From positions 26,995,317 to 27,059,316 of the forward strand of contig JASXTE010000011.1 in NCBI GenBank assembly GCA_030280995.1: a DNA stretch of 64,000 nucleotides. The letters are read 5' to 3'. The stretch's first letter is position 1. Each line of letters opens with the position of its first letter. Shown here piece after piece: positions 1,256-52,494 of this stretch. Under the pieces are notes generated by a model. That model had not been told where the DNA came from. It did no database searches and saw only the letters and a list, made by a program, of their open reading frames with translations. The translations under genes were made by a program, and so were the position numbers. The stretch comes from Hemileia vastatrix. Taxonomy: Eukaryota > Basidiomycota > Pucciniomycetes > Pucciniales > Zaghouaniaceae.

Positions 1256-1733
1256 ATGAACTCTTCATCACCAACTGGCTTATACAGCATAGACTCTGAA
1301 GAAATTAATCATGTTTATCAACTTGCTGAACAAGAGAGTAATGAAGGCAACAGCATGTCCTTAGCTTCAACTCCCAAAAACTTGTCTGTTCAAACTCCAT
1401 CTCCTACATCTCCTTTAACCTTTAACAACTCTATCTCTTCAATCTTTGGGACCTCCTATTCTATTCCAGCCCCAATCAACTCTTCTGATTCCCCTAGTTC
1501 TCCTCGTGGATCTTCTAATTCTTCAAGAATTTCTTCATTGGCCATTCAACAAAACATAACCAGTTCTCTTGCAACAGAAGGTGAGCTCTCTTAACCATAA
1601 ATTTTCCCAATTTTAACAAATTTTAACCCATATAGATAATCCTAAGCCCCCTGAGGCTTCTTCTTCCAACCAGTTAGATGATGAAGATAACTATGTTGGC
1701 CTTATTCTTCCAAAAAACAATTCCAAACTTTAG
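1256..1733 (+). CDS. Antisense accessory gene of element D (Ser/Pro-rich, no zinc cluster)
   Basis: This plus-strand gene lies inside minus-strand element D, in the slot between the 3' LTR and integrase where family 1 elements carry zinc-cluster genes. The start chosen is the ATG at 1,256. Exon 1 runs to 1,580, a 55-bp intron (donor GTGAGC, acceptor TATAG) ends at 1,635, and exon 2 continues in phase to a TAG at 1,731-1,733, giving about 140 residues. The product is rich in Ser, Pro, Thr and Asn, has an acidic patch late, and shows no Cys pattern. An out-of-frame continuation to about 1,830 suggests further decay. Function unknown; the shared position is the main reason to call it a gene. Confidence 0.45.
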
Positions 1734-3681
1734 ATCACACCAGGCTTCTTCTCCATCTGACCTTGAGGAACTTTGGGCTATCATTCAAAACTTTAATAAG
1801 AGTGCTGAGAAATTTTCTAATGATCCAAATTAGATACTCTTGATATAAACTTTTAACAAAAATGATTAGTTTCATATAATTGAATTTTGAAGTTTTAGTT
1901 GGTGCTGAAATATTAAAAATAATTATCTGATTCTGATTTTTCTATCACTAAGAATAAGAGAGTAGGCTTCCACCCCTACTGAGCTAGAACTGCAATGATC
2001 TAGACATCACCATTAGGTCCTCCAATTCTTCTCTACAAAACTTTACATCCCCAATTAAATTAAGCGAGTGGGCTTCCACCCCTACTGAGCTAGAACTGCA
2101 ATGATCTTGACACTTCCATAAGGTCCTCCAATTTCCACAACTTCATCCATCATACTAATTTTCCTACATCACAAAATCAGATCTACAACCAAAAATCTCC
2201 ACAAAGAAAAATTTTGACCAACTAAGTCACCTATTCCCAACATAATTCCATTCCTTTTCTAAAATAAATCTTGAAGATAATCAAAACCAAAAGTCCACAA
2301 TCCAAATTTTTCTGCATAATTGTAAATTGAGAAGGTAGATTCCATAGAATCCTTTAAATGAGTGATTGATATAAAAATGACCGTAAACTTTGAAATATTC
2401 CAACTTCTTCCCACATCTTTCCACACTTCGTAATGAATTTAACAAACAAATGATTAACAAAATCTCCAGTTTAAGGTCTTAGAAGACTAAAAATAAAATT
2501 TTCTTGAAAAATTTGAATCTTCAAGTGCAAAAGACATCCAGTTTATAGTCTTAGAGGACTATCACCTGCATCACAAAACTAATACCAGAGATTGACCTAG
2601 AAACAAATAAGCAAATAAACAAGCTTTGTGGGGTAAATTTTGATAGATCAGCTAGCCCATCAGTTACCCCCACACTTGCTAATATTAAATATAGAAGGTT
2701 CCACTGTGAACACTTCTAACTAAAAAATCCTTCTCACAAATTGACCATTATAAATCACAACAATTTTGACACCTTTAGTTTTCCTTAGTCTTGAAGTTTA
2801 GGACCAATTGTAAAAATGACTTTAAGAGATTTTCAGTTTTAAATATTAAAGGACTAAAAGAATCTTGTAGAGAATTTCAGTTTTAAGTCTTGAAGGACTA
2901 ACAGGGAAAAAGGTAAAATGAAATAGACTAAAAATAAATAAAATAAAACAAAAGATGTCCCCCAGCCATTTGGATGAGCTGAACCCCTGACAACATACCC
3001 ACATCCAAGTGCATGTTGATTGTGGATACACAAGAAAGAAAAATTAAAAATACAACATAAAATAAATTTTTTGAAAATAATCTTTTTGAAAATTAAATTT
3101 TGAAAATTTCAAAATTTGAAAAATGACAATTTAATGAAAATCAAGAAAATAAACTAATGATCACTGGATGTGCTCCCTCCAATTTGTAAAAATGATTGGA
3201 GAACACCAGTGATAATCAACCACAATATAACAACTTTTTTTTTAAAAAAAAAATAAAAATTAAAAAAAAATAAACCAAAAAACACAACAAAACAGAAAAA
3301 CAAATAAAATGAAATAAAACAAAACTCTTGAATCCAGAATTCCAAAAGATTTTGCTGCGTTGGCCTAAGGTTTCAGTTTATAGTCATAGAGGACTACCTA
3401 TATAACAAAAACAAAGCCAGGATTCAACTAAAAACAGAGAAGGGTTGGAAAAAAACATTGTGGAGTAATTGTGTATAGAGCTTCCAACTCATCAATTACC
3501 CCCAAACTTGCCAATATTAAATCTAGAAGGTTCCCCTGTGAACACTCCTAACAAAATTTGATTCCATCTCAAATTTTCACCATAAAATAAAATTTTAAAA
3601 TCAAAGTAATGAGTGATTCCTTGAAAGACTGTGAGATTTCCTAAAAGATTGATTTTGTAGTTTATCCTTATTTCAGAGTCA
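1734..3681. repeat. Non-coding region of element D with repeated hairpin motifs
   Basis: There is no convincing gene here. The region holds diverged copies of the CAGTTTA-(GTC..GAC) motif (for example near 2,468, 2,538, 2,835, 2,878 and 3,371), a 75-bp direct duplication near 1,965-2,030 and 2,066-2,135, and conserved hairpins that match family 1: a CAGC/GCTG and CCACA/TGTGG pair at 2,963-3,025, a long stem-loop at 3,158-3,218, and two versions of the GGGGTAAT/ATTACCCC hairpin at 2,630-2,670 and 3,462-3,502. Confidence 0.6.
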
Positions 3682-9124: not shown

Positions 9125-9304
9125 TCATAAATAACTCACATTAAAATTTAAAATTTGTTCAAGTATGTAGGAAATGTTTATTGGGGCTTGACAATTAAGA
9201 CGTCTTAATTGTTGAGGATTAAGAGAAGCAAGATATAATGAAGAATAGAAGTCACTTGGAAAACCCCTGGGGACTGAAAAAGAATTAAAGTGAGTCTCAA
9301 TTGA
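9125..9304 (-). pseudogene. Unknown gene, 3' fragment (C-terminus)
   Basis: The C-terminal part of an unrecognised protein, ending in a TGA at 9,125-9,127. Its frame runs without break into the next piece at 9,566 once the MITE at 9,305-9,565 and one TGA target copy are removed. The 3' end overlaps the last exon of the convergent helicase gene by about 20 bp. No motif or domain is recognised; the segment is rich in Asn, Ser and Leu. Confidence 0.6.
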
Positions 9305-10242: not shown

Positions 10243-10247
10243 TGTGG
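10239..10247. repeat. Left target duplication (ACGG) plus first 5 bp of the family 2 solo LTR
   Basis: ACGG at 10,239-10,242 matches ACGG at 37,115-37,118 beyond the far end of the solo LTR. The next bases TGTGG at 10,243-10,247 are the start of that LTR, and GTGG at 10,244-10,247 is repeated at 36,044-36,047 as the target duplication of the tandem gypsy array. Confidence 0.85.
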
Positions 10248-10648
10248 TATGGTAAGGTAAACTCTTACAGTCGTCTTGCTGTAAGTAGAATCCGGAGGAG
10301 ATATGTGGATTTAGCTGAAAACCCCGTCCTTCCAACAAAAAAAAATATCAAAATGGGAATTCTAAATCACTAAGCTAACCAATCTACTTGGATCTGATTT
10401 ATAAAATAATGAAACTCTAAAATAATTAACGCTTATTGAGATTAAAAGAAAGTGGCTGTTGAGAAAAGAAATACTGATAACAACAATTAAGGTGTACCAG
10501 TGAAAGATCTGTAAAGATTGACTTTTATGTTTTTATAATATTTTAAATTTATATGAGACAGCAATAATCAAGTCCCAGCAATGAAGACCTTTCTAAAGAT
10601 ACCCTGTATGAAGTGTGATTTAAATTGTTGAGTAGTATTTCTAAAATG

Positions 10649-10659
10649 TTATATATAAA
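10649..10659 (-). promoter_or_regulatory. TATA-like box in LTR-1
   Basis: The minus strand reads TTTATATATAA about 190 bp downstream, in element orientation, of the CCG/CGG array. It is the best core-promoter candidate for the gag-pol transcript, though the surroundings are AT-rich. The same sequence is in the other family 1 LTRs. Confidence 0.4.
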
Positions 10660-10840
10660 ATATAATGTTATAAGGGTATTACAATTTATTTAATTTGTTG
10701 AGTAATAAAAAATGAGACTGTGGTAGTTAATGATTAAGCTGAATGATGTGTCCCCCCTCTCAATTTCGAGTTTGAGAGTCGCTTAAGTATTCCTAGTCAC
10801 GTGCCTAAGTTTTCCCCTCCAGAGCTCTTCCAGAGTCAAT

Positions 10841-10919
10841 CCGGAGCCCGTACGGAGTCCATACGGAGTCCGTACGGAGTCAAAGCGGAGTCCGTACGGA
10901 GTCCGTCCGGACTTCCGGA
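10841..10919. promoter_or_regulatory. 11-bp-period array of CCGTACGG-like sites in LTR-1
   Basis: Repeated units of the form TCC(G/A)TACGGAG, six in a row with variants, give closely packed everted CCG..CGG triplets in otherwise AT-rich DNA. The 11-bp period is near one helical turn. Zn2Cys6 proteins are known to bind paired CGG triplets. The array is also present at 23,178-23,256, 35,513-35,581, about 48,838-48,950 and 61,136-61,204, with varying unit number. Binding by the element's own protein is inference. Confidence 0.6.
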
Positions 10920-11381
10920 CTCAATTTAGAACCTTAAAACCATAATAAAAAATCTAGAAAAATTACACATAATAGAGCTACTTCCCCTTTACATACCAAA
11001 CTAATTTTCGTAGTCTGCGCAGCTCTAATTACCCCGTGAAAATTCATCGAATTTAAGTAATTTCTGAAAACGTAAATATTTCTATAAAACTTTAAAATTC
11101 ATTTAAAAATATAAGAAAAATAGTAAAAATTCTGGGAAAATTTCCCAAGGTTCTTGAGTGACTCAACTTAATACTTATAAATTTTTCAGACCATAAAAAT
11201 AAGTTTTCTCCGTAAAATAAATTGTTTTCGTGTAGGCATTTGCTCGTGACCAATTTCTTCATATTTAAAACTCCAATAAATTAAATAAAACCCTTTTATA
11301 AAAAATAATAACGCCAATCTTGCACGCCGTAATAACTCCATTTACGTACTTAGGTGCCGTACTAAACTTTAGGCTACCACA

Positions 11382-11391
11382 TCCTCCCTCC
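11382..11391 (-). other. Polypurine tract of copy A
   Basis: The minus strand reads GGAGGGAGGA directly before the TGTGG start of the 3' LTR. It is identical at 23,719 (copy B) and 49,407 (copy C). Confidence 0.8.
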
Positions 11392-11504
11392 AATCGAGAA
11401 TGTCCCCATTCTTAAAACTTTGCATAAGTGGTTGAACACAATATTCATCTTTAACCTTCAACCACCATCTTCTTTAATCAACTATAAAATTCATCTTCAT
11501 CAAT

Positions 11505-12198
11505 ATGTCTTCCAAAGAACTTGTCGCTCCATGTGAACTCTGCGCTCGATACCAGGTACCTTGTTTAATGTCCAACCCTAATCTTCCTGGCAGAACAGCT
11601 TGCGACTTATGCCATGTGAAAAAAGTCAAATGCAACCGGCCAATAGTTCCTTCTAAAAAAAACGTATATTTAGGACCAGCAGCTCTCCCTGATCCCTCAA
11701 CTTCTAAAAAGTGATCCAAAATTCCTGTCTTCTTAAAACAAATAAGATCAAAAACAGCTTCAAAAGTTCAATCTTCATCAACGGATCCCGGCCTAATTTT
11801 GCCTTCACAAGATCCTAATCCTATAACGCCAGTACCCCCAACTAACTTTGCTGGGACTATGTTTCCTGGCTCTAAATGTAAGATGCTATTTATCTTACTA
11901 AAAAAAAACTTTTAATCAAAATTGACTAAACCTATGACTTAATAACATATTTGAACTTCTAGCTGTCGAAATAACCAACACTGATGATGTTGGTAGAGTG
12001 AAGACGGACTATATCAATCATTACCCAAATTTTCATCGCTATCTTTTTCTTGACTTTACTAATGAGTTGAAACGAAAAATGCTGGCCTATTTTCAAGAAA
12101 CTCCAGCTAATAACCATGAAGACCTCATGAAAAGAAGAATTTTAATGCAAAGCTTTGATAATGATGTTGAACAATTTCAAAGAAATTATCTTTTCTAA
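11505..12198 (+). CDS. Antisense zinc-cluster protein gene of copy A
   Basis: It runs opposite to gag-pol, between the 3' LTR and integrase, and starts 124 bp inside the LTR. Cysteines 10, 13, 20, 33, 36 and 43 give C-X2-C-X6-C-X12-C-X2-C-X6-C, the spacing of fungal Zn2Cys6 DNA-binding domains; the basic half (CDLCHVKKVKC) comes second, whereas in Gal4 it comes first. A TGA at 11,712-11,714 ends the first frame after 69 codons, but the frame stays open beyond it to a GTAAGA donor at 11,878. An intron to 11,962 joins in phase to a second exon ending in TAA at 12,198, about 200 codons in all. The C-terminal part is charged and helix-prone. It may regulate the element through the LTR array; this is untested. 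It may be made as a 69-residue peptide only. Confidence 0.65.
11878..11962 (+). other. Intron of the antisense gene, copy A
   Basis: Donor GTAAGA and acceptor CTTCTAG, 85 bp. Splicing keeps the frame from the post-TGA segment into the exon beginning SVEITNTDD. Matching introns lie at 24,215-24,299 and 49,909-49,990. Confidence 0.7.
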
Positions 12199-14739: not shown

Positions 14740-14970
14740 TTGATAAAAAAAAAAGATGATAGTTTATCCTCGTTGCGGAGGTATCCATAAAATTTCGTAG
14801 ATATCATAGTTTATCCTCGTTGCGGAGGTATAAAATTTGATAAATGTCATTAAAATTGTAGTTTATCCTCATTCCGGAGTTCGTCCATATAATTTCATAA
14901 ATGTCATAGTTTATCCTCATTGCGGAGGAATCCGTAAAGTTTCATTGATATCATAGTTTATCCTCATTGC
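14740..14970 (-). repeat. Ladder of TTTATCCTC-ATTGCG-GAGG motifs at the pol 3' end
   Basis: Five spaced copies of AGTTTATCCTC followed by a 6-nt loop and GAGG (one with the second half altered). The last supplies the pol stop codon: the integrase frame ends FLRNEDKL-stop inside it. Same motif family as in the pol N-terminal repeats. Confidence 0.75.
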
Positions 14971-15799
14971 GGAGGAAGACTTCGGCACTCCTGGTGCCTC
15001 TAGGATAGAACCGTTTCACTTGATCGGCCGCTACCCTCTTCTTCAATACTACTCCATCCAACTCTTCTAGCACATATGAACCGCCGGAAACTTGCTCCTT
15101 GATTTTATACGGTCCATTCCACCTATCTGCAAACATCTTTCCCCACTGACTTTCCAAACTCCTATTATACACCAGGACCATATCACCTGGGTTCAAAGGT
15201 TTCCTTAATCGATGTGCCAACCGCTCATCCCAATATCTGACTGATTGATTTCGGATCTTCATCATCCGCGAATATGCCTTTTCTAAATATTCTTCTTTCT
15301 TTTCTAGCTGCATCATTCTTGCACACAATAATTCTTCAGTAGTTTTGACCGTGTCCCAGTCAACTCCAAGATATGATTCAGCTTCTAAATCAACCGGTAA
15401 AACTGCTTTCTGTCCAAAAACAAGTTCATAAGGTGAAAATCCGGTCGTCCTTTTGGCAGTGATTCGATCAGCAAATAAAACTAAAGGTAAATAGTGCCTC
15501 CACTTTTCGGCACTTGTCCCACACATTTTAACTAAAGCATCCTTAATAACTTGATGCCCTCTTTCAACCATGCCTTCAGCTTCAGGATAATATGGGGTTG
15601 CTACCCTAACCTTTGATCCAACTTTCAATACGGCCTCTTTAAACTCTGTCCCAAATTCAGAACCTCCATCTACCGTCACCAACTTCATCACCCCATACCT
15701 ATATACCCAATTATTCAAAAAAAATTCTGCCACATTTTTGGCAGTTAAATTAATAAGAGGCGCTGCCTCTACCCAACCAGATAAATCATCTCTGGCCAC
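14951..15799 (-). CDS. Integrase C-terminal part of pol, copy A
   Basis: This is the catalytic and C-terminal part of a Ty3/gypsy integrase. It shows ARDDLSGW, the VTVDGGSEFG block with the second catalytic Asp, YYPEAEGMVERGHQ with the catalytic Glu, and a C-terminal GDMVLVYN..WNGPYKI region like the GPY/F module. The first catalytic Asp and the zinc-binding domain lie upstream, in or near the frame at 15,901-19,821. A one-base loss near 15,950 puts the two parts out of frame, so this is pol interrupted by a frameshift, not a separate gene. The start given is only the first Met. Confidence 0.85.
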   Translation of the reverse strand: MARDDLSGWVEAAPLINLTAKNVAEFFLNNWVYRYGVMKLVTVDGGSEFGTEFKEAVLKVGSKVRVATPYYPEAEGMVERGHQVIKDALVKMCGTSAEKWRHYLPLVLFADRITAKRTTGFSPYELVFGQKAVLPVDLEAESYLGVDWDTVKTTEELLCARMMQLEKKEEYLEKAYSRMMKIRNQSVRYWDERLAHRLRKPLNPGDMVLVYNRSLESQWGKMFADRWNGPYKIKEQVSGGSYVLEELDGVVLKKRVAADQVKRFYPRGTRSAEVFLRNEDKL

Positions 15800-15900
15800 A
15801 ATTAAATATTTATACCGTCCCTCTTTTATATGAACGGCATCTAAACTAACTCTTCCAAAGAGCGTATATTCACCGGTCGCGCGTCCAGGTTCTTTTGGCC

Positions 15901-18900
15901 TTAAATAACTTTGTCTTTGACATTCTTCGCATGACTGAACCCATGTTTAACAGCCATCTTCATGCCAGGCCACCAAAATCGATCAGAAATTCTTCTAAAC
16001 GTTTCTCCAACGCCTCTATGCCCGAGATCTTCATGCAGTGATTTCAAAACTAATTCTTGCCCCTTCTCTTGAGTTATAACTACTTGAGGATTTGGATACC
16101 TCCTCCTCATTAAACGTCGACCAGATAGGTAAAACGTAGATGACTTCCTCTTGATAGCCACCCATTCATCGTCTTCACAATCTTCTGGCCTCTCTAAAGT
16201 CAACAAATATTTGACTAACAAAAAATAAAAACCAGTCTGACCCCAGACTTCATCTTGAAAATCAATTAATTTAACATCAATAGGGACTTCTCTATCACCA
16301 ATATCACCTGCACATGAATGAGCCAATAATCGTTGACCCCTAAATAAATCTTTAATCGAGCTATGTCGATGTTTTTCTTCTGAACCTTTGGATCCTTCGA
16401 AAACCGCATTTGAAAATACCTCTTTCTCTTTATCCACCCTTTTATTTAAATTCTCTAATTCTCCAACATATACACCATTCCTTAATTTACTACTATCCCA
16501 CACTACCAATCCATTTTCCTCTACATACACCACATCTTCTTCTACCTCCTCTCTGCCGAATTTATCTACACCTTTTTCAACACCTTTTTTAACATAAAAA
16601 CTATTTTCCAGTTTATCCTCTTGGTGGAGGTCATCATCATCATAATCTAAACACAATAGTCCTGCCAGTTTAACCTCATGGGGGAGGTATGGAAAGTCTT
16701 CAGCTCCTTTAGTGCTGGCTTTGATAATAGGTATATCTTCATCGAACTCTTCTGAGTCTGAATCTTCTTCAGTGGGTGGTATCCTTGATAAACCATCTGG
16801 CATAGTAAAAGTTTTTCCAGGCTTATGAACCAAATCAAACGAAAAATGTTGAATAAAAGCTACCCATCTCGTCATGGGTGCGTTCGGTAAACTTGGGGAA
16901 TTAATCATCTGGATTAATGATTTAGCATCCACTTGCAACTCAAAATGTTGCCCCCACAAAATATGCTGAAGTTTCTTCAGTATTTTTGCCACACCACATA
17001 ATTCCAATTTTGGTTGTGAATATCTTGATTCGACCTCAGTAAATACTACAGATTCATACCTAACTGGCCTGATGTAACCAGCTTTATCCATCTGAGACAA
17101 AACCGCCCCAGCTGCAACCTGACTTGAATCGACTGCTAAATAAATTCTGCCAGCTTCTTTTCCATAATCCAACTTGTGCAGGACTAAATCCTTCCCCACA
17201 ACCTCCTTCAACTTCACAAACGCCTTCTCACACTCTTCATCCCACTCCCAGTCTGCATCCTTTCTCGTTAACCGTCTCAATGGAGCTGCCAATGAAGAAA
17301 AGTCCTTGATAAACATTCTAACATATACGCAAACGCCTAAAAACCCTCTAACTTCGGTCGTATTCTTGGGTCTTGGCCAGGACTGAATTTTGTTAACTTT
17401 CATCTTGGACATAATCCTACCCTCTCTACATACCACATGGCCTAATATTTCTAAGGCTGGCACACAACATGAAAATTTTGAACCTGAAATAGTTAAACCA
17501 GCCTCTTCAATTCGAAACAAGATTCTTTCTAAAGTAATTGCAAACTCCCAAATGAATTTGCGTATCCCGGGATTCTCTTCCAACACCTGGTTATCATAGT
17601 CGGTTGTTGGTCCCTTAATTCCTCCATCATCTATAAAGATTCCAGCGTATTGTGGAATTTCATCTTGAAGGATCCAAGCCATCTGAGCTTGATAAACTGC
17701 AACCGAATTTGTTGCTCCTTGAGGTAATCTTGTTAACTGTAAACGTCCAAGTGGTGTATCGAATGTAGTGAGAGGCCTTGAGTCCGGATGTAACTCTCTC
17801 TCATTGTATCCACCCATAATATCTCCCATACCATAACACACTCTCCCTGCAAACGCTTCAACAAACTCCTCAGCACTAGGCCGTATCCCAGCATCCTTTA
17901 TTGTAACCCTATTTAATTCCCTAAGATCATGAACAACTCTAAGCTTGCCATTCGGTTTCTTGATACAAAATACCGGACTAGAATAACTTGACGTTGATTG
18001 CTCATACAGTCCAGTGCGTATCCGTTCTCTGACAACTTCGATATAAGCTTCTTTCAATGCAGCTGGAATAGGAATCGGTTTCTGCTGCCACGGTTCATGA
18101 CATACCACAGGAATCTTGTAAGGCTCCCCATAGGAATGCTTCAACACACCCCTCTCCTCTTCTACAAAAGCAATGGCCTTCTCTCGCTTGACCATCACAT
18201 CCAACAACAACTTCTTCTCTTCTCCAGACAACCAACCATCAGGTTCAAAATTAACAACACCCAGTCTCTCAAAAGTGATTCTTGACGTCTCAGAAAATTC
18301 AGGCGGATTCTTTACCAAGGGACTTTCATAAGGATCTCTTGATAAACTTGGTCTTCTCAAGGGTGGATTTAATTTGGCAGGTAGCAGTTCATTAATAGGT
18401 CGAACTTTATTTGCTACTTTCTTATATTTGGCTGCCTCCACATCTAAATAAACTTGAGGTAAAACATTTACTTTTGTATCGCCATTAAAAATTTCATCAA
18501 ATGAATCTTCTTCATTGTCAGAATCGGAATAAGAAAAATTAGAAAAATATTTTATTTCATTTTTAAATTTTACCCTTTTCTCCTTTCCCTCGTCTAATTT
18601 ATAAACAGATTTTCCAACACCTTTTCTTCCCTTATCCAACAGTAAATTGCCCGTAAAGAAAGTTGGCAGTTTACCCTCTTGCTGGAGGACCGGAATTGAA
18701 TTTTCACAAAAATTATTTTTTTGGGTTTTAATTATACTGAGATTTTTTATCGAGTTTTGATGTAATTTTTGCAGTTCACCCTCTTGCTGGAGGTCCCTAA
18801 TAGAAGGAGATAATTGCAGTTTAACCTCTTGCTGGAGGTCTGGAAACGAATTTTCACAAAAATTATTTTTTTGTGTTTTACTTATACTGAGATTTTTAAT

Positions 18901-19821
18901 CGAGTTTTGATGTAATTTTTGCAGTTTACCCTCTTGCTGGAGGTCCGTAATAGAAGGAGATAATTGCAGTTTAACCTCTTGCTGGAGGACCGGAATTGAA
19001 TTTTCACAAAAATTATTTTTTTGGGTTTTAATTATACTGAGATTTTTTATCGAGTTTTGATGTAATTTTCGCAGTTTACCCTCTTGCTGGAGGTCCAAAA
19101 TAGAAGGAGATAATTGCAGTTTAACCTCTTGCTGGAGGTCCCGAATAACATTTTCACATAAGTTATTTTTTTGTGTTTTACTTATACTGAGATTTTTAAT
19201 CGAGTTTTGATGTAATTTTTGCAGTTTACCCTCTTGCTGGAGGTCCGTAATAGAAGGAGATAATTGCAGTTTAACCTCTTGCTGGAGGTCCGGAAACGAA
19301 TTTTCACAAAAATTATTTTTTTGTGTTTTAATTATACTAAGATTTTTAATTGGATTTTGATAAGATTTTCGCAGTTTACCCTCTTGCTGGAGGTCCAAAA
19401 TAGAAGGAGATAATTGCAGTTTAACCTCTTGCTGGAGGTCCCGAATAACATTTTCACATAAGTTATTTTTTTGTGTTTTACTTATACTGAGATTTTTAAT
19501 CGAGTTTTGATGTAATTTTTGCAGTTTACCCTCTTGCTGGAGGTCCATAAACATACCCTTCCAATTTTTATCCAACCTAATTTGGCCCATTTTGCCCTTT
19601 TCACCGTTTTTAAATTTAATAGAAAAACAGGGTAAACCCAATAAACATATAGAAAAGTCCATAACATATTTGCACTCCAAAGTAATATTAACAGAAAATA
19701 ATTGAGAATCCACTTGAATTATCTCCAAGTGAGCTGACCTATTGCAATCCGGGATCTCATCCTGAGGAGAGATTACAACATTTGAGCGATCAGCCCCTGC
19801 TACCCCAAAAAATGAGGGCAT
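15901..19821 (-). CDS. Pol polyprotein (repeat region, RT, RNase H, integrase start), copy A
   Basis: Residues ~90-395 are twelve LQQE(G/V)KL units in a 50-residue alternating repeat; each is the translation of a CAGTTTA-type hairpin motif. RT follows at ~600-740: fingers SPVFCIKKPNGKLRVVHDL, motif A GDIMGGY, motif B LPQGATNS, and catalytic FIDD at ~729 in place of the usual YxDD. RNase H is at ~890-1010 (AVDSS, KLELCG, VDAKS, MPDGLSR). An HEDLGHRG..FWWPG integrase start ends in a frameshift near 15,950. Pol overlaps the protease frame by 22 bp and lies -1 to it, with a TTTTTTG slip site. Two more motif copies are translated between RNase H and integrase. Confidence 0.9.
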   Translation of the reverse strand: MPSFFGVAGADRSNVVISPQDEIPDCNRSAHLEIIQVDSQLFSVNITLECKYVMDFSICLLGLPCFSIKFKNGEKGKMGQIRLDKNWKGMFMDLQQEGKLQKLHQNSIKNLSISKTQKNNLCENVIRDLQQEVKLQLSPSILDLQQEGKLRKSYQNPIKNLSIIKTQKNNFCENSFPDLQQEVKLQLSPSITDLQQEGKLQKLHQNSIKNLSISKTQKNNLCENVIRDLQQEVKLQLSPSILDLQQEGKLRKLHQNSIKNLSIIKTQKNNFCENSIPVLQQEVKLQLSPSITDLQQEGKLQKLHQNSIKNLSISKTQKNNFCENSFPDLQQEVKLQLSPSIRDLQQEGELQKLHQNSIKNLSIIKTQKNNFCENSIPVLQQEGKLPTFFTGNLLLDKGRKGVGKSVYKLDEGKEKRVKFKNEIKYFSNFSYSDSDNEEDSFDEIFNGDTKVNVLPQVYLDVEAAKYKKVANKVRPINELLPAKLNPPLRRPSLSRDPYESPLVKNPPEFSETSRITFERLGVVNFEPDGWLSGEEKKLLLDVMVKREKAIAFVEEERGVLKHSYGEPYKIPVVCHEPWQQKPIPIPAALKEAYIEVVRERIRTGLYEQSTSSYSSPVFCIKKPNGKLRVVHDLRELNRVTIKDAGIRPSAEEFVEAFAGRVCYGMGDIMGGYNERELHPDSRPLTTFDTPLGRLQLTRLPQGATNSVAVYQAQMAWILQDEIPQYAGIFIDDGGIKGPTTDYDNQVLEENPGIRKFIWEFAITLERILFRIEEAGLTISGSKFSCCVPALEILGHVVCREGRIMSKMKVNKIQSWPRPKNTTEVRGFLGVCVYVRMFIKDFSSLAAPLRRLTRKDADWEWDEECEKAFVKLKEVVGKDLVLHKLDYGKEAGRIYLAVDSSQVAAGAVLSQMDKAGYIRPVRYESVVFTEVESRYSQPKLELCGVAKILKKLQHILWGQHFELQVDAKSLIQMINSPSLPNAPMTRWVAFIQHFSFDLVHKPGKTFTMPDGLSRIPPTEEDSDSEEFDEDIPIIKASTKGAEDFPYLPHEVKLAGLLCLDYDDDDLHQEDKLENSFYVKKGVEKGVDKFGREEVEEDVVYVEENGLVVWDSSKLRNGVYVGELENLNKRVDKEKEVFSNAVFEGSKGSEEKHRHSSIKDLFRGQRLLAHSCAGDIGDREVPIDVKLIDFQDEVWGQTGFYFLLVKYLLTLERPEDCEDDEWVAIKRKSSTFYLSGRRLMRRRYPNPQVVITQEKGQELVLKSLHEDLGHRGVGETFRRISDRFWWPGMKMAVKHGFSHAKNVKDKVI
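18661..19545 (-). repeat. 150-bp tandem repeats with 12 hairpin motifs inside pol, copy A
   Basis: Twelve copies of GCAGTTTA(C/A)CCTCTTGCTGGAGG alternate at 45 and 105 bp, making a 150-bp higher-order unit that keeps frame. CCTC and GAGG can pair around a 6-nt loop. Copy C has only three motifs here (57,332-57,510), so the array has expanded or contracted by whole units. Confidence 0.9.
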
Positions 19822-20153
19822 TCATCCCTTTCCAACAAACATAATTCACCAGAAGCCGTCCGTTTTATATGCCGCTTCTTGGTGCAAACACAACACTGGC
19901 ACAGAGTAGTAATCCCTGGCCGTGTTTCCCAACCTTCATCTCCAGGAGGTGCTAGCCGCATATGTAACCTCCGCATATCTTCACCAGTGATCTCCAAACT
20001 AATCCCCATGCCAGCTTGATACCCTATCCTGGCCTCAAAATCCATCAAAAAAGGACCACCAAGAACAGTTTTGACTGCTCCTCGGGCCACATAAAAGTGA
20101 ACCTTACCAACAGATCCACCAATGCCTAACCTGACATGCTCAGCAGTACCCAT
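19800..20153 (-). CDS. Protease C-terminal part, copy A
   Basis: This frame holds the end of the retropepsin-like domain (KTVLGGPFLMDF, matching the family ILG-type C-terminal block) and a Cys/His-rich tail (CQCCVC). In copy C the same sequence is continuous with the VDSGSQINLIS active site in one frame. In copies A and B a one-base loss near 20,192 separates them. The frame stops at the TAG at 19,800-19,802, two codons after the frameshift site. Confidence 0.75.
   Translation of the reverse strand: MGTAEHVRLGIGGSVGKVHFYVARGAVKTVLGGPFLMDFEARIGYQAGMGISLEITGEDMRRLHMRLAPPGDEGWETRPGITTLCQCCVCTKKRHIKRTASGELCLLERDECPHFLG
19806..19812 (-). other. Candidate -1 ribosomal frameshift heptamer (T TTT TTG), copy A
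   Basis: In the protease frame the codons read CAT TTT TTG GGG TAG; slipping back one base enters the pol frame (TTT TTT GGG GTA). The heptamer fits X XXY YYZ and the stop follows two codons on. The same sequence is present at 32,142-32,148 and 57,768-57,774. Confidence 0.65.
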
Positions 20154-22408
20154 CAGCTCTGTTGCATGCCCTCCAATACCTCTGAGGTTTCCCCCGTTCC
20201 ACTTTTAATTGGCAAGCCTATACTCGTCGCTTGCTCCAATGAAATTAAATTAATTTGAGACCCTGAATCTACCAAGGCCTTTACTTCTTTACCATTAAGA
20301 GTTACCACCAGGTAACCCAGGGGAGCGGAAAAATGTGTATCTACATCTTCCCCAAACTTTTCAGCATTTTCACAAATATATTCCACCTCTCCAGTGGAAA
20401 CCCGACGCCTCGTCAAATGCTTCTTTTGCTTTTCAGCAAGCGCCGGACTAATCGTAAATAACTCCCCCAAAGATAAGGGAATCTGCAGTTGATTCACCCT
20501 ATTCAAAACTGCGTCCATCGCATTAGCTTGACCAGAAGCTACTGGCCGCTCATACTGGACCTTTGATTTAACAACCTTGGCCCTGGGTACCTCTTGAGGT
20601 CCAACCGAGCCATCTTCACCCCCCATTATAACATCTTCACTTTCTATAACCCTAACTCCGTCACCAGCTTCTTGCACTAATCCTGATCCATCGCTAGTCC
20701 TTCTTACACCCTCCATTGGGATGGGACCGCTAAAACTTGGTCTGGGTAGAGACGCCAACGGTACGTCCTCCTCAGAATCCAAATCATCCTCTGGCATAGG
20801 CTCACCATTTAAATCAAACTTGCCATAACTAGGGGGCCCCATATCAGCAATCCCCTTCTGCATTTTATATAATTTGTCCTTAGAGTAAGGGTTCAATTTG
20901 TTGACGGCCGTTTGAGCACTAGAATTCTTGTCCTTAGAGTAAGGGTTCACTTTTTTATTGGCCTTGCCAGGATTAGCCCTCAATTGGCTCTGAATGCTAC
21001 TTTTCGCCTTAGTAGCGGCTGCTCTTCTAGCAGCATTAACATCGTATTTGCCAGCCATACAGCTACCCTCCACCTGGGCAACCGTCGCCAGCTCTAAACC
21101 TCCAAAAGAAGTAGAAAATGTGGCTTTACTGACCTCTTTCTCCTTGCCCTTGTCAGCTTTACCACCATTACCATTACCATTTTTGCCACTCTTGGAATTA
21201 ACATCTTCATCCGTCACCTCTTCAAATCTGGCTCTCCTTTCAGCCGTTAAACTTCTTCTGACCAAATCAGAAGGAGACTGTCCATCACTGGGCTTGAGGA
21301 ACGAACCATCGGGAAATTTATAAACTTTACCATCGAATAAAACTCGCCCAGCATCCATATCCTTATCAAGAGCAAAACAAACTGTTGCTCTGTGCCCTCT
21401 CCTATTACAATAGGAGCACACCTTTGGCTCATCATAGCCACCTCTATAACTACTACCACCATTCCCACCATTTCTCCCATTGCCTGGGAAGCGGTTACCG
21501 TTGTTATTGCCATTATAATTTCGACGTTCATAACCTCTAGACTGATAAGAAGTCGACGTCGACGAAGAAGCGATTGGGGCCTTATTGGCCTTCTGGGTTT
21601 CTTGAACAAATATTTTTAATTGTTTAGTTAAATCGGCCAGGTGATCGACCATCTTATTATCTACATTACCCTCAACTTTAGCAGCAGGTAATCCCATTTG
21701 AGCCTTCTTAGCCTCCTGGGCTTTGACCATAATATCATTGTTTTCGGCCAAAACTTCGCTAACCTTGCTAACATATTGAGTGAATGACTCTTGATATTTG
21801 TCCAACGCCAATAACTTTAGATGGGATTGAATGTTGTCCTTGATAACCTCCAGAGCCGGCAGTTTCTGCTCACCATTAGGCAGTTCCTTCATCAAATCTT
21901 TTCTTGAAAGATCCTTCAAGACGTCCATACGAATATCCCTGCTGCATGCTGACCAAAACAAATCTTTTGCTTGGTTCTCATGCACTAACTCGTCCACCAG
22001 TATGAGATATTCCACCACTTCATCAAACTGAACACAGAGCTTTTTGAAGTCAGCCATAGAAGAAACACCACCTTTTGCTTGCCAGTCTCCAACGATTTTA
22101 TTGAGGTCCATCATAGTAAACCTAACACCCCATCTATCAACCATAGCTTTAGAAAGCTTAACCCAATCCTTGTCCTTGAATGCCTGCATAGCAATAACCT
22201 CTTTTTCCACCTCCCTATCGGCAATAAAAAATCTAACTTGCTTCACCATATCCACATGGGAAGCACCATCAACAGCAGCAGCAGCTTCATACCTGCTAAT
22301 GAACCATTTAACCTCCTCCCCATCAAACTTTGGGCCATCCCAAGAAACAATTCTAACTGAGAGAGTAAGAGGGTTAGAAGATCCAGAAGCAACAGCAGAA
22401 GAAGACAT
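20153..22408 (-). CDS. Gag-protease polyprotein, copy A
   Basis: Gag forms the particle and binds element RNA. The start MSSSAV lies about 160 bp after the primer site. The N-terminal ~250 residues are helical capsid-like sequence with VRFFIADREVEKEV. A Gly/Asn/Arg-rich basic stretch precedes one CCHC zinc knuckle (CSYCNRRGHRATVC, near residues 328-341). A long acidic, low-complexity linker follows with two NPYSKDK repeats. Near residue 713 the retropepsin active site appears as LVDSGSQINLIS. A frameshift near 20,192, absent from copy C, cuts the protease before its C-terminal block, so the true gag-pro product would extend to 19,800. Confidence 0.9.
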   Translation of the reverse strand: MSSSAVASGSSNPLTLSVRIVSWDGPKFDGEEVKWFISRYEAAAAVDGASHVDMVKQVRFFIADREVEKEVIAMQAFKDKDWVKLSKAMVDRWGVRFTMMDLNKIVGDWQAKGGVSSMADFKKLCVQFDEVVEYLILVDELVHENQAKDLFWSACSRDIRMDVLKDLSRKDLMKELPNGEQKLPALEVIKDNIQSHLKLLALDKYQESFTQYVSKVSEVLAENNDIMVKAQEAKKAQMGLPAAKVEGNVDNKMVDHLADLTKQLKIFVQETQKANKAPIASSSTSTSYQSRGYERRNYNGNNNGNRFPGNGRNGGNGGSSYRGGYDEPKVCSYCNRRGHRATVCFALDKDMDAGRVLFDGKVYKFPDGSFLKPSDGQSPSDLVRRSLTAERRARFEEVTDEDVNSKSGKNGNGNGGKADKGKEKEVSKATFSTSFGGLELATVAQVEGSCMAGKYDVNAARRAAATKAKSSIQSQLRANPGKANKKVNPYSKDKNSSAQTAVNKLNPYSKDKLYKMQKGIADMGPPSYGKFDLNGEPMPEDDLDSEEDVPLASLPRPSFSGPIPMEGVRRTSDGSGLVQEAGDGVRVIESEDVIMGGEDGSVGPQEVPRAKVVKSKVQYERPVASGQANAMDAVLNRVNQLQIPLSLGELFTISPALAEKQKKHLTRRRVSTGEVEYICENAEKFGEDVDTHFSAPLGYLVVTLNGKEVKALVDSGSQINLISLEQATSIGLPIKSGTGETSEVLEGMQQS

Positions 22409-22565
22409 CCCAATAAGTAATGAAAAGCGTTAACAATCGATAAAATAACAAGCCTCTTGCAGGCCAATAACAAAAATCCAATTAGAGTTCCAGAAAATAA
22501 GCCTCTTGCAGGCTAATAACGTTCTTGATCCAAGTAAGTCTTTAAAGAAAGCTAGAGAAATCGAA
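22409..22565 (-). other. Leader of copy A with two hairpin repeats
   Basis: Two copies of AAGCCTCTTGCAGGC(C/T)AATAAC, each able to fold as AGCCT/AGGCT around CTTGC, sit between the primer site and gag. Their core CCTCTTGC is also the core of the motif repeated inside pol. A role in RNA packaging or dimerisation is possible but only inferred. Confidence 0.5.
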
Positions 22566-22584: not shown

Positions 22585-23718
22585 TATGGTAAGGTAAACT
22601 CTTACAGTCACCTTGCTGTAAGCAGAATCCGGAGGAGATATGTGGATTTAGCTGAAAACCCCGTCCTTCCAACAAAAAAAAATATCAAAATGGGAATTCT
22701 AAATCACTAAGCTAACCAATCTACTTGGATCTGATTTATAAAATAATGAAACTCTAAAATAATTAACGCTTATTGAGATTAAAAGAAAGTGGCTGTTGAG
22801 AAAAGAAATACTGATAACAACAATTAAGGTGTACCAGTGAAAGATCTGTAAAGATTGACTTTTATGTTTTTATAATATTTTAAATTTATATGAGACAGCA
22901 ATAATCAAGTCCCAGCAATGAAGACCTTTCTAAAGATACCCTGTATGAAGTGTGATTTAAATTGTTGAGTAGTATTTCTAAAATGTTATATATAAAATAT
23001 AATGTTATAAGGGTATTACAATTTATTTAATTTGTTGAGTAATAAAAAATGAGACTGTGGTAGTTAATGATTAAGCTGAATGATGTGTCCCCCCTCTCAA
23101 TTTCGAGTTTGAGAGTCGCTTAAGTATTCCTAGTCACGTGCCTAAGTTTTCCCCTCCAGAGCTCTTCCAGAGTCAATCCGGAGCCCGTACGGAGTCCATA
23201 CGGAGTCCGTACGGAGTCAAAGCGGAGTCCGTACGGAGTCCGTCCGGACTTCCGGACTCAATTTAGAACCTTAAAACCATAATAAAAAATCTAGAAAAAT
23301 TACACATAATAGAGCTACTTCCCCTTTACATACCAAACTAATTTTCGTAGTCTGCGCAGCTCTAATTACCCCGTGAAAATTCATCGAATTTAAGTAATTT
23401 CTGAAAACGTAAATATTTCTATAAAACTTTAAAATTCATTTAAAAATATAAGAAAAATAGTAAAAATTCTGGGAAAATTTCCCAAGGTTCTTGAGTGACT
23501 CAACTTAATACTTATAAATTTTTCAGACCATAAAAATAAGTTTTCTCCGTAAAATAAATTGTTTTCGTGTAGGCATTTGCTCGTGACCAATTTCTTCATA
23601 TTTAAAACTCCAATAAATTAAATAAAACCCTTTTATAAAAAATAATAACGCCAATCTTGCACGCCGTAATAACTCCATTTACGTACTTAGGTGCCGTACT
23701 AAACTTTAGGCTACCACA
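22585..23718 (-). repeat. Family 1 LTR-2 (shared middle LTR), 1,134 bp, chimeric
   Basis: It acts as 5' LTR of copy A and 3' LTR of copy B. Its left part matches LTR-3 (22,610, 22,611 and 22,623 differ from LTR-1), while its right part matches LTR-1 (six array units, the CCATACGG variant at 23,198, and a G in ATTCATCGAAT). This is the pattern left by unequal crossing-over between outer LTRs. Confidence 0.9.
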
Positions 23719-23841: not shown

Positions 23842-24535
23842 ATGTCTTCCAAAGAACTTGTCGCTCCATGTGAACTCTGCGCTCGATACCAGGTACCTTG
23901 TTTAATGTCCAACCCTAATCTTCCTGGCAGAACAGCTTGCGACTTATGCCATGTGAAAAAAGTCAAATGCAACCGGCCAATAGTTCCTTCTAAAACAAAC
24001 GTATATTTAGGACCAGCAGCTCTCCCTGATCCCTCAACTTCTAAAAAGTGATCCAAAATTCCTGTCTTCTTAAAACAAATAAGATCAAAAACAGCTTCAA
24101 AAGTTCAATCTTCATCAACGGATCCCGGCCTAATTTTGCCTTCACAAGATCCTAATCCTATAACGCCAGTACCCCCAACTAACTTTGCTGGGACTATGTT
24201 TCCTGGCTCTAAATGTAAGATGCTATTTATCTTACTAAAAAAAAACTTTTAATCAAAATTGACTAAACCTATGACTTAATAACATATTTGAACTTCTAGC
24301 TGTCGAAATAACCAACACTGATGATGTTGGTAGAGTGAAGACGGACTATATCAATCATTACCCAAATTTTCATCGCTATCTTTTTCTTGACTTTACTAAT
24401 GAGTTGAAACGAAAAATGCTGGCCTATTTTCAAGAAACTCCAGCTAATAACCATGAAGACCTCATGAAAAGAAGAATTTTAATGCAAAGCTTTGATAATG
24501 ATGTTGAACAATTTCAAAGAAATTATCTTTTCTAA
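23842..24535 (+). CDS. Antisense zinc-cluster protein gene of copy B
   Basis: Same gene as at 11,505 with one residue change in exon 1 (a codon for Thr where copy A has Lys after PSK). The six-Cys cluster, the TGA at 24,049-24,051, the open frame after it, the intron at 24,215-24,299 and the second exon to 24,535 are all retained. Copy C shares the Thr codon, so copy A carries the newer change. Its upstream flank is the end of the chimeric LTR-2, so any LTR-driven antisense transcription of this copy would come from LTR-2. Confidence 0.65.
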
Positions 24536-34920: not shown

Positions 34921-36043
34921 TATGGTAAGGTAAACTCTTACAGTCACCTTGCTGTAAGCAGAATCCGGAGGAGATATGTGGATTTAGCTGAAAACCCCGT
35001 CCTTCCAACAAAAAAAAATATCAAAATGGGAATTCTAAATCACTAAGCTAACCAATCTACTTGGATCTGATTTATAAAATAATGAAACTCTAAAATAATT
35101 AACGCTTATTGAGATTAAAAGAAAGTGGCTGTTGAGAAAAGAAATACTGATAACAACAATTAAGGTGTACCAGTGAAAGATCTGTAAAGATTGACTTTTA
35201 TGTTTTTATAATATTTTAAATTTATATGAGACAGCAATAATCAAGTCCCAGCAATGAAGACCTTTCTAAAGATACCCTGTATGAAGTGTGATTTAAATTG
35301 TTGAGTAGTATTTCTAAAATGTTATATATAAAATATAATGTTATAAGGGTATTACAATTTATTTAATTTGTTGAGTAATAAAAAATGAGACTGTGGTAGT
35401 TAATGATTAAGCTGAATGATGTGTCCCCCCTCTCAATTTCGAGTTTGAGAGTCGCTTAAGTATTCCTAGTCACGTGCCTAAGTTTTCCCCTCCAGAGCTC
35501 TTCCAGAGTCAATCCGGAGCCCGTACGGAGTCCGTACGGAGTCGAAACGGAGTCCGTACGGAGTCCGTCCGGACTTCCGGACTCAATTTAGAACCTTAAA
35601 ACCATAATAAAAAATCTAGAAAAATTACACATAATAGAGCTACTTCCCCTTTACATACCAAACTAATTTTCGTAGTCTGCGCAGCTCTAATTACCCCGTG
35701 AAAATTCATCAAATTTAAGTAATTTCTGAAAACGTAAATATTTCTATAAAACTTTAAAATTCATTTAAAAATATAAGAAAAATAGTAAAAATTCTGGGAA
35801 AATTTCCCAAGGTTCTTGAGTGACTCAACTTAATACTTATAAATTTTTCAGACCATAAAAATAAGTTTTCTCCGTAAAATAAATTGTTTTCGTGTAGGCA
35901 TTTGCTCGTGACCAATTTCTTCATATTTAAAACTCCAATAAATTAAATAAAACCCTTTTATAAAAAATAATAACGCCAATCTTGCACGCCGTAATAACTC
36001 CATTTACGTACTTAGGTGCCGTACTAAACTTTAGGCTACCACA
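34921..36043 (-). repeat. Family 1 LTR-3 (5' LTR of copy B), 1,123 bp
   Basis: Eleven bases shorter than LTR-1 and LTR-2 because its CCG/CGG array (35,513-35,581) has one unit fewer, with GAAACGG where the others have CAAAGCGG. It ends ACCACA and is followed by GTGG, the target duplication that also precedes LTR-1. Confidence 0.95.
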
Positions 36044-48240: not shown

Positions 48241-49406
48241 TATGGTAAGGTAAACTCTTACAGTCGCCTTGCTGTAAGCAGAATCCAGAGGAGATGTGTG
48301 GATTTAGTGGAAAACCCCGTCCTTCCAATAAAAATAACAAAATGGGAATTCTAAATCACTAAGCTAACCAGTCTACTTGGATCTGATTGATAAAAATAAT
48401 GAAACTCTAAAATATTTAACACTTATTGAGATTTAAATAAAAGTGGCTGTTGAGAAAGAAATACTGATTACAACAATTAAGGTGTACCAGTGAAAGATCT
48501 GAAAAGATTGACTTTTATATTTTTATAATAATTTGAATTTTTATGAGACAGCAATAATCAAGTCCCAGTGATGAAGACCTTTCTAAAGATACCCTGTATG
48601 AAGTGTGATTTAAATTGTTGAGTAGTATTTCTAAAATGTTATATATAAAATATAAAGTTATAAGGGTATTACAATTTTATTTAATTTGTTGAGTAATAAA
48701 ATATGAGACCGTGGTGGTTAAAGATTAAGCTGTATGATGTCTGATGATTGTAAGATGATGCCCAATTTCAAGTCTGAGAGGCTCTTAAGTATTCCTAGTC
48801 ACGTGCCTAAGTTTTCCCCTCCAGAGCTAACCCAGAGTCAATCCAGAGCCGGTATGGGGCTCATACGGAGTCCAAGTGAGGTCCGTCCAGAGTCCAAGCG
48901 GAGTCCGTATGGAGTCCAAACGGAGTCAGTCCGGACCTCCAGACTCAATTAGAACCTTTAAAACTATAATAAAAAATCAAGAAACATTACACATGATAGA
49001 GCCACTTCCCCTTTACATTCCCAACTAATTTTTGTAGCCTGCGCAGCTCTAATCACCCTGTGAAAATTCATCAAAGTTAAGTATTTTTCTAAAAACGTAA
49101 ATATTTCTATAAAACTTTAAAATTCATTTAAAAAAATAAGAAAAATAGTAAAAAATCTGGGAAAATTTCCCAAGGTTCTTGAGTGACTTGACTTGATACT
49201 CATAAATTTTTCCGACCGTAAAAATAAGTATTCTCCGTAAAATATATTGTTTTTGCATAGGCATTCGCTTTTAACCAATTTCTTTATATTTAAAACTCAA
49301 ATAAATTAAATAAAACCCTCTTATAAAAATAATAGCACTAATCTTGCATGCCGTAATAACTCCATTTTAAGTAAATAGGTGCCATACTAAACTTTAGGCT
49401 ACCACA
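48241..49406 (-). repeat. Family 1 3' LTR of copy C, 1,166 bp
   Basis: Starts TATGGTAAGG and ends GCTACCACA like the other family 1 LTRs but is more diverged. Its CCG/CGG array (about 48,838-48,950) has about four more 11-bp units than its partner at 60,546, which accounts for the 43-bp length difference. Several CGG triplets are mutated (TATGG, CAGAG). Confidence 0.95.
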
Positions 49407-49529: not shown

Positions 49530-50226
49530 ATGTCTTTCAAAGAACTTGTCGCTCCATGTAAACTCTGCGCTTGCTACCAGGTACCTTGTTTAATGTCCAA
49601 CCCTAATCTTCCTGGTAGGACAGCTTGCGACTTATGCCATGTGAAAAAAGTCAAATGTAACCGGCCAATAGTTCCTTCTAAAACAAGCGTATATTTAGGA
49701 CCAGCAGCTCTCCCTGATCTCACAACTTCTAAAAAATGATCAAAAATTACTGTCTTCTTAAAACGAATAAGATCAAAAACAGCTTCAAAATCAAAAGTTC
49801 AATCTTCATCAGCCGATCCCGGCGTAATTTTGCCTTCACAAGATCCTAATCCTATAACGCCAGTGCCCCCAACCAACTTTGCTGAGACTATGTTTCCTGG
49901 CTCTAAATGTAAGGCCCTATTATCTTACTAAAAAAACTTTTAATCCAAATTGACTAAAACTATAACTTAATAACATATTTGAACTTCTAGCTGTCAAAAT
50001 AACCAACACTGATGACGTTGGCAAAGTGAAGACGGACTATATCAATCATTATCCAAATTTTCATTGCTATCATTTTCTTGACTTTACAAATGAGTTGAAA
50101 CAAAAAATGCTGGCCTATTTTCAAGAAACTCCAGCTAATAACCATGAAGACCTCATGAAAAGAAGAATTTTAATGCAAAGCTTTGATAATGATGTTGAAC
50201 AATTTCAAAGAAATTATCTTTTCTAA
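49530..50226 (+). CDS. Antisense zinc-cluster gene 1 of copy C
   Basis: Ortholog of the gene at 11,505, starting MSFKELVAPCK, with all six cysteines kept in C-X2-C-X6-C-X12-C-X2-C-X6-C. Exon 1 runs to 49,908, the intron is 49,909-49,990 (GTAAGG..CTTCTAG) and exon 2 ends in TAA at 50,226. The in-frame TGA after codon 69 is at 49,737-49,739, the same place as in copies A and B. Beyond it a 6-bp insertion relative to copy A keeps the frame. The frame on both sides of the stop is therefore maintained in two diverged copies. Confidence 0.65.
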
Positions 50227-51478: not shown

Positions 51479-52494
51479 ATGAAACCTACTGACTTCATTG
51501 CTTCAGCTGATCAATCTTGCAAATATTGTGCTTTATCCCATAGGGAATGTATCTTCACTTTCAACTGGCAAAAGTACACTTATAAAAGGGCCTGTTTATC
51601 CTGTTATGAGAAGAAAAGAAAATGTTCTGGCTTGAATTGTGGTTCTTTCCCCATTACTGCTACTAGCTTTGCCTCCTTCTGCAAACCTCCTCCTTCTTCT
51701 TCACCTTCTACTCCACCCCCTATTCCATCAACTTCTAAAGATCCCATCCCTTTTTCTCCATCAGCCTATTTAAATCTTTCTTCATCACCTAATCCTCTGG
51801 GTCCTTCTCTCCAATCTAGACTTGCTGCTACTCCCCCAAGAACTCTTACTGCTCCCAGGTCCATGCTTCAACCTTCAAACAATTCTTCTCCTACTTCCAA
51901 CATCTTGAAGCACAAAAGGTCCTATAATAGCCAGCAATCTTCATCTTCTCTTGTTTCATCCAAAAATCCCAGAACATTTACTTCAAACACCAAATCCAAC
52001 ACCAGTCCTCCTCATCTATCAAAAATTAAAAATCCTTTTTTAAACATAAAAAATCCCACTCCATTACCAAGTAAGCCATTTATCTATGATCTTGATAGTG
52101 TTGACACAGGCTAGTTGTCCCTTTTTATTTTCCTTAATCTTCAGGCTTTAATATTGCTGATATTTTAATTTGATAAGCGTCCACCGGTTCTCCAATTCCA
52201 TATTCAGCTTATGAACTACCAGAACCTAATACAAGCTTCCCTAGAGTTCCAATTCACCTAGTGTCTGAAAAGCTCTTTGCTAATTTTAATAACCTTATTG
52301 CTTATTTCCAACAATACCTGCCCTCTGATAGATCAGAATCTTGGATGAGAGAACAACTGTTAAGAGACCTTTTCAAAATAGCCAGCTGGCTTCAACACTA
52401 TCGTGACTGGGAAATAAGATTCGAATCCCAGGAAATCAATCAAGGTCCTCCTAAATTTTCTAATTTCGATTCTTCAAAAGATAACAACCCTTGA
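51479..52494 (+). CDS. Antisense zinc-cluster gene 2 of copy C, apparently intact
   Basis: Cysteines 14, 17, 24, 39, 42 and 49 give C-X2-C-X6-C-X14-C-X2-C-X6-C, again with the basic half (CLSCYEKKRKC) second. A long Ser/Pro/Asn linker follows, typical of regulator linkers. Exon 1 ends at 52,070 (donor GTAAGC), and an intron to 52,177 joins in phase to an exon with YELPEPNTSFPRVPIHLVSEKL and a helical C-terminus (LIAYFQQYLPSDRSESW), ending at the TGA at 52,492-52,494. The product is about 302 residues with no internal stop. It is a paralog, not a copy, of gene 1: the layout is alike but residue identity is low. Absent from copies A and B, where tandem motifs occupy the slot. The ATG at 51,437 would add 14 residues. 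Confidence 0.65.

What the first reader, a model, noticed from the sequence alone, without database searches (positions are those of the whole stretch)
10841..12198. Gypsy element that encodes an antisense zinc-cluster protein and carries a matching CGG-triplet array in its LTR
Seen: a plus-strand spliced gene with a six-Cys cluster of Zn2Cys6 spacing inside a minus-strand gypsy element, and an 11-bp-period array of CCGTACGG-like sequences in the LTR of the same element, about 190 bp upstream of a TATA-like box. Known: Gal4-type Zn2Cys6 proteins bind paired CGG triplets, and antisense accessory ORFs in the integrase-LTR interval occur in some plant gypsy elements. Inference: the protein binds the array and controls its own element, as activator or silencer. 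The array stands out because the rest of the LTR is AT-rich.
Basis: partly seen in the sequence, partly recalled or inferred. Interest (0 to 1): 0.88.

Follow-up and report, generated by a model that had tools for sequence, protein, structure and literature searches.

The report
Antisense zinc-cluster genes in fungal retrotransposons
A probably fungal gypsy-type retrotransposon carries, backwards to its own genes, one or two genes for proteins that look like DNA-binding zinc-cluster regulators but with the two half-clusters in reversed order, beside a promoter array of the CGG triplets such proteins usually read; one of the two genes is interrupted and no binding has been shown.

Summary
The window holds three copies of one ~13.4-kb minus-strand gypsy element: a tandem pair sharing LTRs (10248-36043) and a third copy (48241-61668). 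All three carry the plus-strand six-Cys gene between integrase and 3' LTR. Three LTRs carry a regular 11-bp CGG array; the two LTRs of the third copy carry a degraded one.

Two corrections. Gene 1 has an in-frame TGA at codon 70 in all three copies, so by the standard code it ends after 69 aa; only one weak GC-AG splice could bypass it and keep six Cys in all copies. The cluster is not Gal4-like in order: its N-terminal half matches only second half-clusters of solved Zn2Cys6 proteins, its C-terminal half only first ones.

New here: the third copy has a second, uninterrupted antisense gene (302 aa) with the same swapped order. A decayed relative has an antisense gene at the same place without a cluster, while its LTR keeps two CCGGAG sites.

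Self-regulation through the array is plausible but unproven. Plant Retand elements have a similar layout with unrelated proteins. The searches made found no relatives, and the own-genome search did not complete.

The parts
10248..11381 (-). LTR a (3' LTR of first tandem unit); TSD GTGG at 10244-10247
10842..10918 (.). CGG array of LTR a: seven CGG at exact 11-bp spacing (10842-10908) plus one at 10916
10649..10660 (-). TATA-like stretch, about 185 bp downstream of the array in element sense
11505..11877 (+). antisense gene 1, exon 1 (copy a); phase-1 end; contains the TGA
11532..11633 (+). six-Cys cluster with swapped half-clusters (copy a)
11712..11714 (+). in-frame TGA (also 24049-24051 and 49737-49739)
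11878..11962 (+). predicted GT-AG intron of gene 1, 85 nt
11963..12198 (+). gene 1, exon 2
14951..15946 (-). integrase core ORF (PF00665)
15901..19821 (-). pol ORF: RT, RNaseH, integrase zinc domain
20153..22429 (-). gag plus start of protease
22585..23718 (-). LTR b, shared by the two tandem units; array 23170-23248
23842..24535 (+). gene 1, copy b (intron 24215-24299)
34921..36043 (-). LTR c; six CGG at 11-bp spacing 35515-35570; TSD GTGG at 36044-36047
48241..49406 (-). LTR d (3' LTR of third copy), degraded array; TSD ACGT
49530..50226 (+). gene 1, copy d (intron 49909-49990), same TGA, six Cys kept
51479..52070 (+). antisense gene 2, exon 1 (third copy only); six Cys at 51518-51625
52071..52177 (+). 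predicted intron of gene 2, 107 nt; later acceptors also keep the frame
52178..52494 (+). gene 2, exon 2
60546..61668 (-). LTR e, degraded array; TSD ACGT
1256..1735 (+). antisense gene 3 of a decayed relative, no cluster; predicted intron 1581-1635 (phase 1); next stop near 1735

Best explanation
A gypsy lineage, probably of a fungus, carries a small family of antisense accessory genes in the interval between integrase and 3' LTR. The genes share their place and orientation and one predicted phase-1 intron; genes 1 and 2 begin with a Zn2Cys6-type cluster whose half-clusters are in reverse of the Gal4 order. Shown: genes, place, orientation, Cys pattern, swapped sequence order, array, shared TGA. 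Inferred: a plus-strand transcript starting in or near the 3' LTR makes the protein; the cluster folds around two zinc ions, reads CGG through its Lys-Lys helix, and binds the 11-bp-spaced sites in the U3 on one face of the helix, changing sense transcription of its own element. Whether it activates or represses is open. The 69-aa product of gene 1 would be a bare cluster that can at most occupy sites; gene 2 would supply a longer form.
For: Six-Cys pattern 4 in the window, 0 in 60 null windows. PF00172 25.5 bits (copy a) and 21.7 (copy d), cut-off 21. Half-cluster searches of PDB sequences: N half 3 of 3 hits are second triads, C half 6 of 6 hits are first triads (E 0.17-4, so it is the pattern, not any one hit, that counts). 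Whole-cluster searches show the same crossing with PPR1 and LEU3. Swapping the halves gives one continuous PF00172 match in both genes. Invariant K39, K40, K42 and six Cys in gene 1 and gene 2. Foldseek with a weak gene 1 model: 24 of 28 chains are Zn2Cys6 regulators, best E 0.49. Gene 1, b against d: synonymous fraction 0.431 against 0.247 expected, P 0.014; spacer frames P 0.42-0.84; gag and pol 0 of 5000. Three of four CGG spacing layouts exceed 2000 of 2000 array-composition draws. C-terminal similarity: gene 1 and gene 2 E 3e-4, gene 3 and gene 1 E 0.001, each for one comparison.
Confidence: 0.38

Rival explanations
1. The antisense genes are real element genes, but the array is a CpG-rich minisatellite or a binding site of host factors; protein and array lie in one element without acting on each other. 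The protein acts elsewhere, for example on host genes or on the other internal repeats.
For: The relative keeps CCGGAG sites without a cluster gene. 11-bp arrays without CGG occur in a MITE-like repeat at 9451-9522 and a short one at 400-427. Copy number varies between LTRs of one element (LTR a against c, 11 bp; d against e, a 44-bp gap), as in slippage. GCGGAG also recurs in 47-bp internal repeats, 5 in copies a and b, 3 in copy d.
Against: The array is exactly phased and rich in paired CGG beyond its own composition, and sits upstream of the TATA-like stretch in the U3.
Confidence: 0.36
2. Gene 1 is a dying passenger: a captured Zn2Cys6-type gene, already stopped by TGA, now carried along, with only gene 2 still meaningful or neither.
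For: TGA shared by 3 of 3 copies, including the nearly identical tandem pair.
Against: Excess of synonymous changes in gene 1 (P 0.014), also after the stop (P 0.04); all six Cys kept in copy d; a second antisense gene and a third related one at the same place.
Confidence: 0.17
3. The useful product is the antisense RNA, not the protein: it pairs with element RNA and feeds or blocks small-RNA silencing.
For: Antisense position next to the 3' LTR; such a role is discussed for plant elements.
Against: Synonymous bias and conserved Cys argue for a protein.
Confidence: 0.09

Closest known systems
Retand, plant Ty3/gypsy, antisense ORFs (PMC11963269; passages read)
   Same: Long pol-3'LTR interval with antisense ORFs, a protein domain predicted to bind DNA, tandem repeats in that interval, and a suggested regulatory role
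   Different: TRP28 (PF04195) there; not reported in the Pfam scans of genes 1-3 here. Plant host. In the passages seen the arrays lie in the internal region; a U3 array was not mentioned. The terms zinc and intron do not occur in its main text
Plant aORF-3R elements Grande, RIRE2, PvRetro13 (review PMC7264820; passages read)
   Same: Antisense gene between pol and 3' LTR; nuclear protein and own promoter reported for Grande
   Different: The review says no clear similarity to known proteins for these; no zinc cluster mentioned (term zinc 0 times)
brtn, antisense gene of Boty-like elements of Botrytis cinerea (Zhao 2011; title in reference lists and a methods passage only; paper not held)
   Same: Additional antisense gene in a fungal LTR retrotransposon
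   Different: Its protein was not seen, so no comparison could be made; it shows that antisense genes in fungal gypsy elements as such are not new
Zn2Cys6 regulators GAL4, PPR1, LEU3 (PF00172)
   Same: Six Cys, basic KKxKC triad, both half-clusters recognisable
   Different: Half-clusters in reverse order along the chain
HTLV-1 HBZ (recalled; the HTLV antisense promoter in the 3' LTR is mentioned in PMC7264820)
   Same: Regulator encoded antisense from the 3' LTR side of a retroelement
   Different: bZIP protein of a retrovirus (recalled); no relation implied

Membership tests
Ty3/gypsy LTR retrotransposon | paired LTRs, target duplication, PBS and PPT | tested here: met
   TSD GTGG and ACGT, LTR pairs; PBS-like and PPT-like stretches read by eye, primer tRNA not tested
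Ty3/gypsy LTR retrotransposon | RT, RNaseH, integrase order | tested here: met
   PF00078 620-796, PF17919/PF17917 860-993, PF17921 1253-1292, PF00665 in next ORF
Zn2Cys6 regulators (PF00172) | six Cys with CX2CX6C half-clusters | tested here: met
   gene 1 with 12 and gene 2 with 14 residues between halves; the usual range of 5-12 is recalled
Zn2Cys6 regulators (PF00172) | profile score above curated cut-off 21 | tested here: inconclusive
   gene 1: 25.5 and 21.7 bits, met; gene 2: 9.0, or 15.5 as fragment, not met
Zn2Cys6 regulators (PF00172) | basic half-cluster first, other half second | tested here: not met
   reversed in genes 1 and 2
Zn2Cys6 regulators (PF00172) | zinc-cluster fold | tested here: inconclusive
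Zn2Cys6 regulators (PF00172) | binds paired CGG | not testable with these tools
   needs a binding assay
Antisense aORF elements (Retand type) | antisense gene between pol and 3' LTR | tested here: met
   genes 1 and 2, gene 3
Antisense aORF elements (Retand type) | TRP28 domain (PF04195) | tested here: not met
   not among matches in Pfam scans
Antisense aORF elements (Retand type) | tandem repeats in the same interval | tested here: met
   45-, 73/148- and 47-bp repeats

The most novel reading that the evidence does not exclude
A fungal gypsy lineage carries, as exchangeable antisense cassettes, a family of regulators built on a Zn2Cys6 cluster with circularly swapped halves that binds an 11-bp-phased CGG array in its own LTR: an LTR retrotransposon that encodes its own sequence-specific transcription factor on the opposite strand, with copies bearing one, two or no cluster genes as regulatory variants.
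Probability: 0.27. Interest if true: 0.83.

Novelty: new variant of a known kind. Interest (0 to 1): 0.6.

Why it matters
What antisense genes of LTR retrotransposons do is stated to be unknown in the plant literature seen. Here the gene product has a recognisable DNA-binding type and a candidate target in the same element, so the question becomes directly testable with one binding assay and one reporter. Separately, a Zn2Cys6-type cluster with reversed half-clusters would show that this fungal DNA-binding unit tolerates circular rearrangement, and would explain why simple profile searches report only half of it.

Tried and rejected
Protein homologues: gene 2 (1655 candidates, none at E 0.001 or better), gene 1 (17 candidates, none at E 10 or better), gene 1 residues 1-60 (no candidate sharing three words). 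The search needs shared 5-residue words and a similar length, and it is not known whether close fungal genomes are held, so this is weak evidence of absence. Related loci: pol in viral contigs and in the prokaryote genome contigs, gag, gene 2 exon 1, cluster alignment, array pattern: none. Own genome: 14 requests, 0 answered; so co-occurrence of array and gene over many copies remains untested, and the host is not identified. A fungus is inferred from PF00172 and Plavaka matches; a rust fungus was suspected from recall only.

Splicing past the TGA: scanned donors from 60 nt after the ATG, introns of 35-260 nt, intron 2 kept. Copies a and b have a 36-nt GT-AG pair that copy d lacks. The only GT-AG pair common to 3 of 3 (donor GTCCAA) would cut out the second Cys triad. 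One GC-AG pair common to 3 of 3 (GCCAAT...AATAAG, 108 nt) keeps six Cys; its donor is poor, so I hold it unlikely but not excluded. Other GC-AG pairs listed cut into the cluster or are not shared. Read-through of the TGA is also not excluded.

Decay argument: one search gave 17 disruptions and P 0.010, but with pol in a wrong frame; one search corrects it to 10 in 5634 nt and P 0.068, so the argument is dropped. Fold: gene 2 model failed. Permutation literature: (0 papers each); zinc-cluster genes in LTR retrotransposons: 0 papers each; listings only, nothing matching in the 15, 15 and 10 rows shown. These cover open-licence papers only. I have an unverified recollection that basidiomycete proteomes hold proteins with the basic triad second; no call tests it. 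Integrase frame overlap in copy d: the alignment missed the region, so unresolved.

Full report
Setting. The window is 36.5% GC and holds three copies of one minus-strand gypsy element. Copies a and b form a tandem LTR-internal-LTR-internal-LTR array at 10248-36043 with GTGG on both sides; their internal regions differ by 4 substitutions. A third copy at 48241-61668 has ACGT on both sides and LTRs differing at 37 of 1122 aligned sites. Copies of the two groups are about 90-93% identical in the longer aligned blocks. The pol ORF has RT, RNaseH and the integrase zinc domain, the integrase core follows in another frame, and gag with the start of protease precedes. Frames are interrupted around protease and integrase even in copies a and b, so these copies may be defective.

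Gene 1. In all three copies a plus-strand gene starts 124 bp from the LTR edge (ATG 11505 in copy a) and, with one 82- to 85-nt intron, runs to 12198. It holds CX2CX6CX12CX2CX6C. An in-frame TGA follows 69 codons in 3 of 3 copies. Between copies b and d the gene has 12.5 synonymous and 16.5 non-synonymous changes. Using the mutation spectrum of the LTR and the spacer, the synonymous fraction is 0.431 against 0.247 expected (P 0.014 for the whole, 0.13 before the stop, 0.04 after it), while three frames of the spacer give P 0.42-0.84 and gag and pol exceed all 5000 draws. So the gene has probably been under constraint, weaker than gag, and perhaps also beyond the stop. This fits recent interruption, read-through or an unrecognised splice; the data do not decide. 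The scan for splices is described under Tried and rejected.

Gene 2. Where copies a and b have 73/148-bp repeats, the third copy has a second plus-strand gene, 51479-52494, 302 aa with a 107-nt intron. Later acceptors also keep the frame, giving shorter products. It starts with CX2CX6CX14CX2CX6C. Genes 1 and 2 share the Cys, K39, K40 and K42, a phase-1 intron (373 and 592 nt of exon 1, coordinates), and a weakly similar C-terminal part (E 3e-4 for one comparison).

Gene 3. A decayed relative lies at the left end of the window. A 34-bp stretch over its LTR edge matches copy a (88%), which puts the edge near 1175; the second LTR was not found by BLAST. Its antisense gene starts at 1256, has a predicted 55-nt phase-1 intron, and has no six-Cys pattern. 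A piece in another frame behind a stop aligns with the C-terminus of gene 1 (E 0.001) but poorly with gene 2 (E 0.079). So an antisense gene at this place is older than these copies, and the cluster is not a constant part of it.

Array. LTRs a and b have seven and LTR c six CGG at exact 11-bp spacing; LTRs d and e keep few. Within the array of LTR a, CGG-N3-CCG (4), CCG-N2-CGG (4) and CGG-N8-CGG (6) exceed all 2000 draws of array composition; CCG-N8-CCG (1) does not. The array lies 463-540 bp from the LTR start in element sense, upstream of a TATA-like stretch. The relative has two CCGGAG at about 447-463 bp from its LTR edge. Array length differs between LTRs of one element, as expected of slippage. 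A MITE-like repeat (9304-9566) has an 11-bp array without CGG.

Reading. The layout, an antisense gene next to the 3' LTR plus tandem repeats in the interval, parallels plant Retand elements, whose antisense TRP28 proteins are also thought to bind DNA. Fungal precedent for an antisense gene exists in Boty-like elements. What is not covered by what I saw is a zinc-cluster protein, the swapped order, two such genes in one element, and a candidate target in the U3. I favour self-regulation at 0.38, barely above the rival that protein and array do not act on each other (0.36).

Limits. The host is unidentified, the genome search did not complete in 14 requests, and no collection searched held a relative. 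All claims on function are inference.

Noticed in passing
10248-36043: Tandem gypsy array LTR-int-LTR-int-LTR with one pair of 4-bp target duplications (GTGG); internal regions differ by 4 substitutions.
   Followed up: partly
12788-13627, 25125-25964, 50886-51384, 2468-3394: Module AGTTTAAAGTCTTGGWGGAC: 11 copies each in a and b, 8 in the third copy, 3 in the decayed relative by one regular expression; it could favour exchange of gene cassettes.
   Followed up: partly
14752-14975, 53506-53665: 47-bp repeats with TTTATCCTCATTGCGGAG, 5 in copies a and b, 3 in the third copy: a second set of CGGAG sites inside the element.
   Followed up: no
9304-9566: MITE-like repeat with 46-bp inverted ends (87%) around an 11-bp-period GAGTTCAGTCT array.
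   Followed up: partly
18666-19550 and 31002-31886: Six in-frame copies of a 150-bp repeat (DLQQEGKL...) inside pol upstream of RT.
   Followed up: no
36044-47236: Inverted arms 36044-37114 and 46151-47236 (75%) around a tnp2/Plavaka-type transposase; the tandem gypsy array ends exactly at its edge.
   Followed up: no
LTRs a-e: By the target duplications the LTR reads TG...TA, not TG...CA.
   Followed up: no
6960-7526: Part of a SNF2-type gene (PF00176), apparently interrupted or intron-bearing.
   Followed up: no
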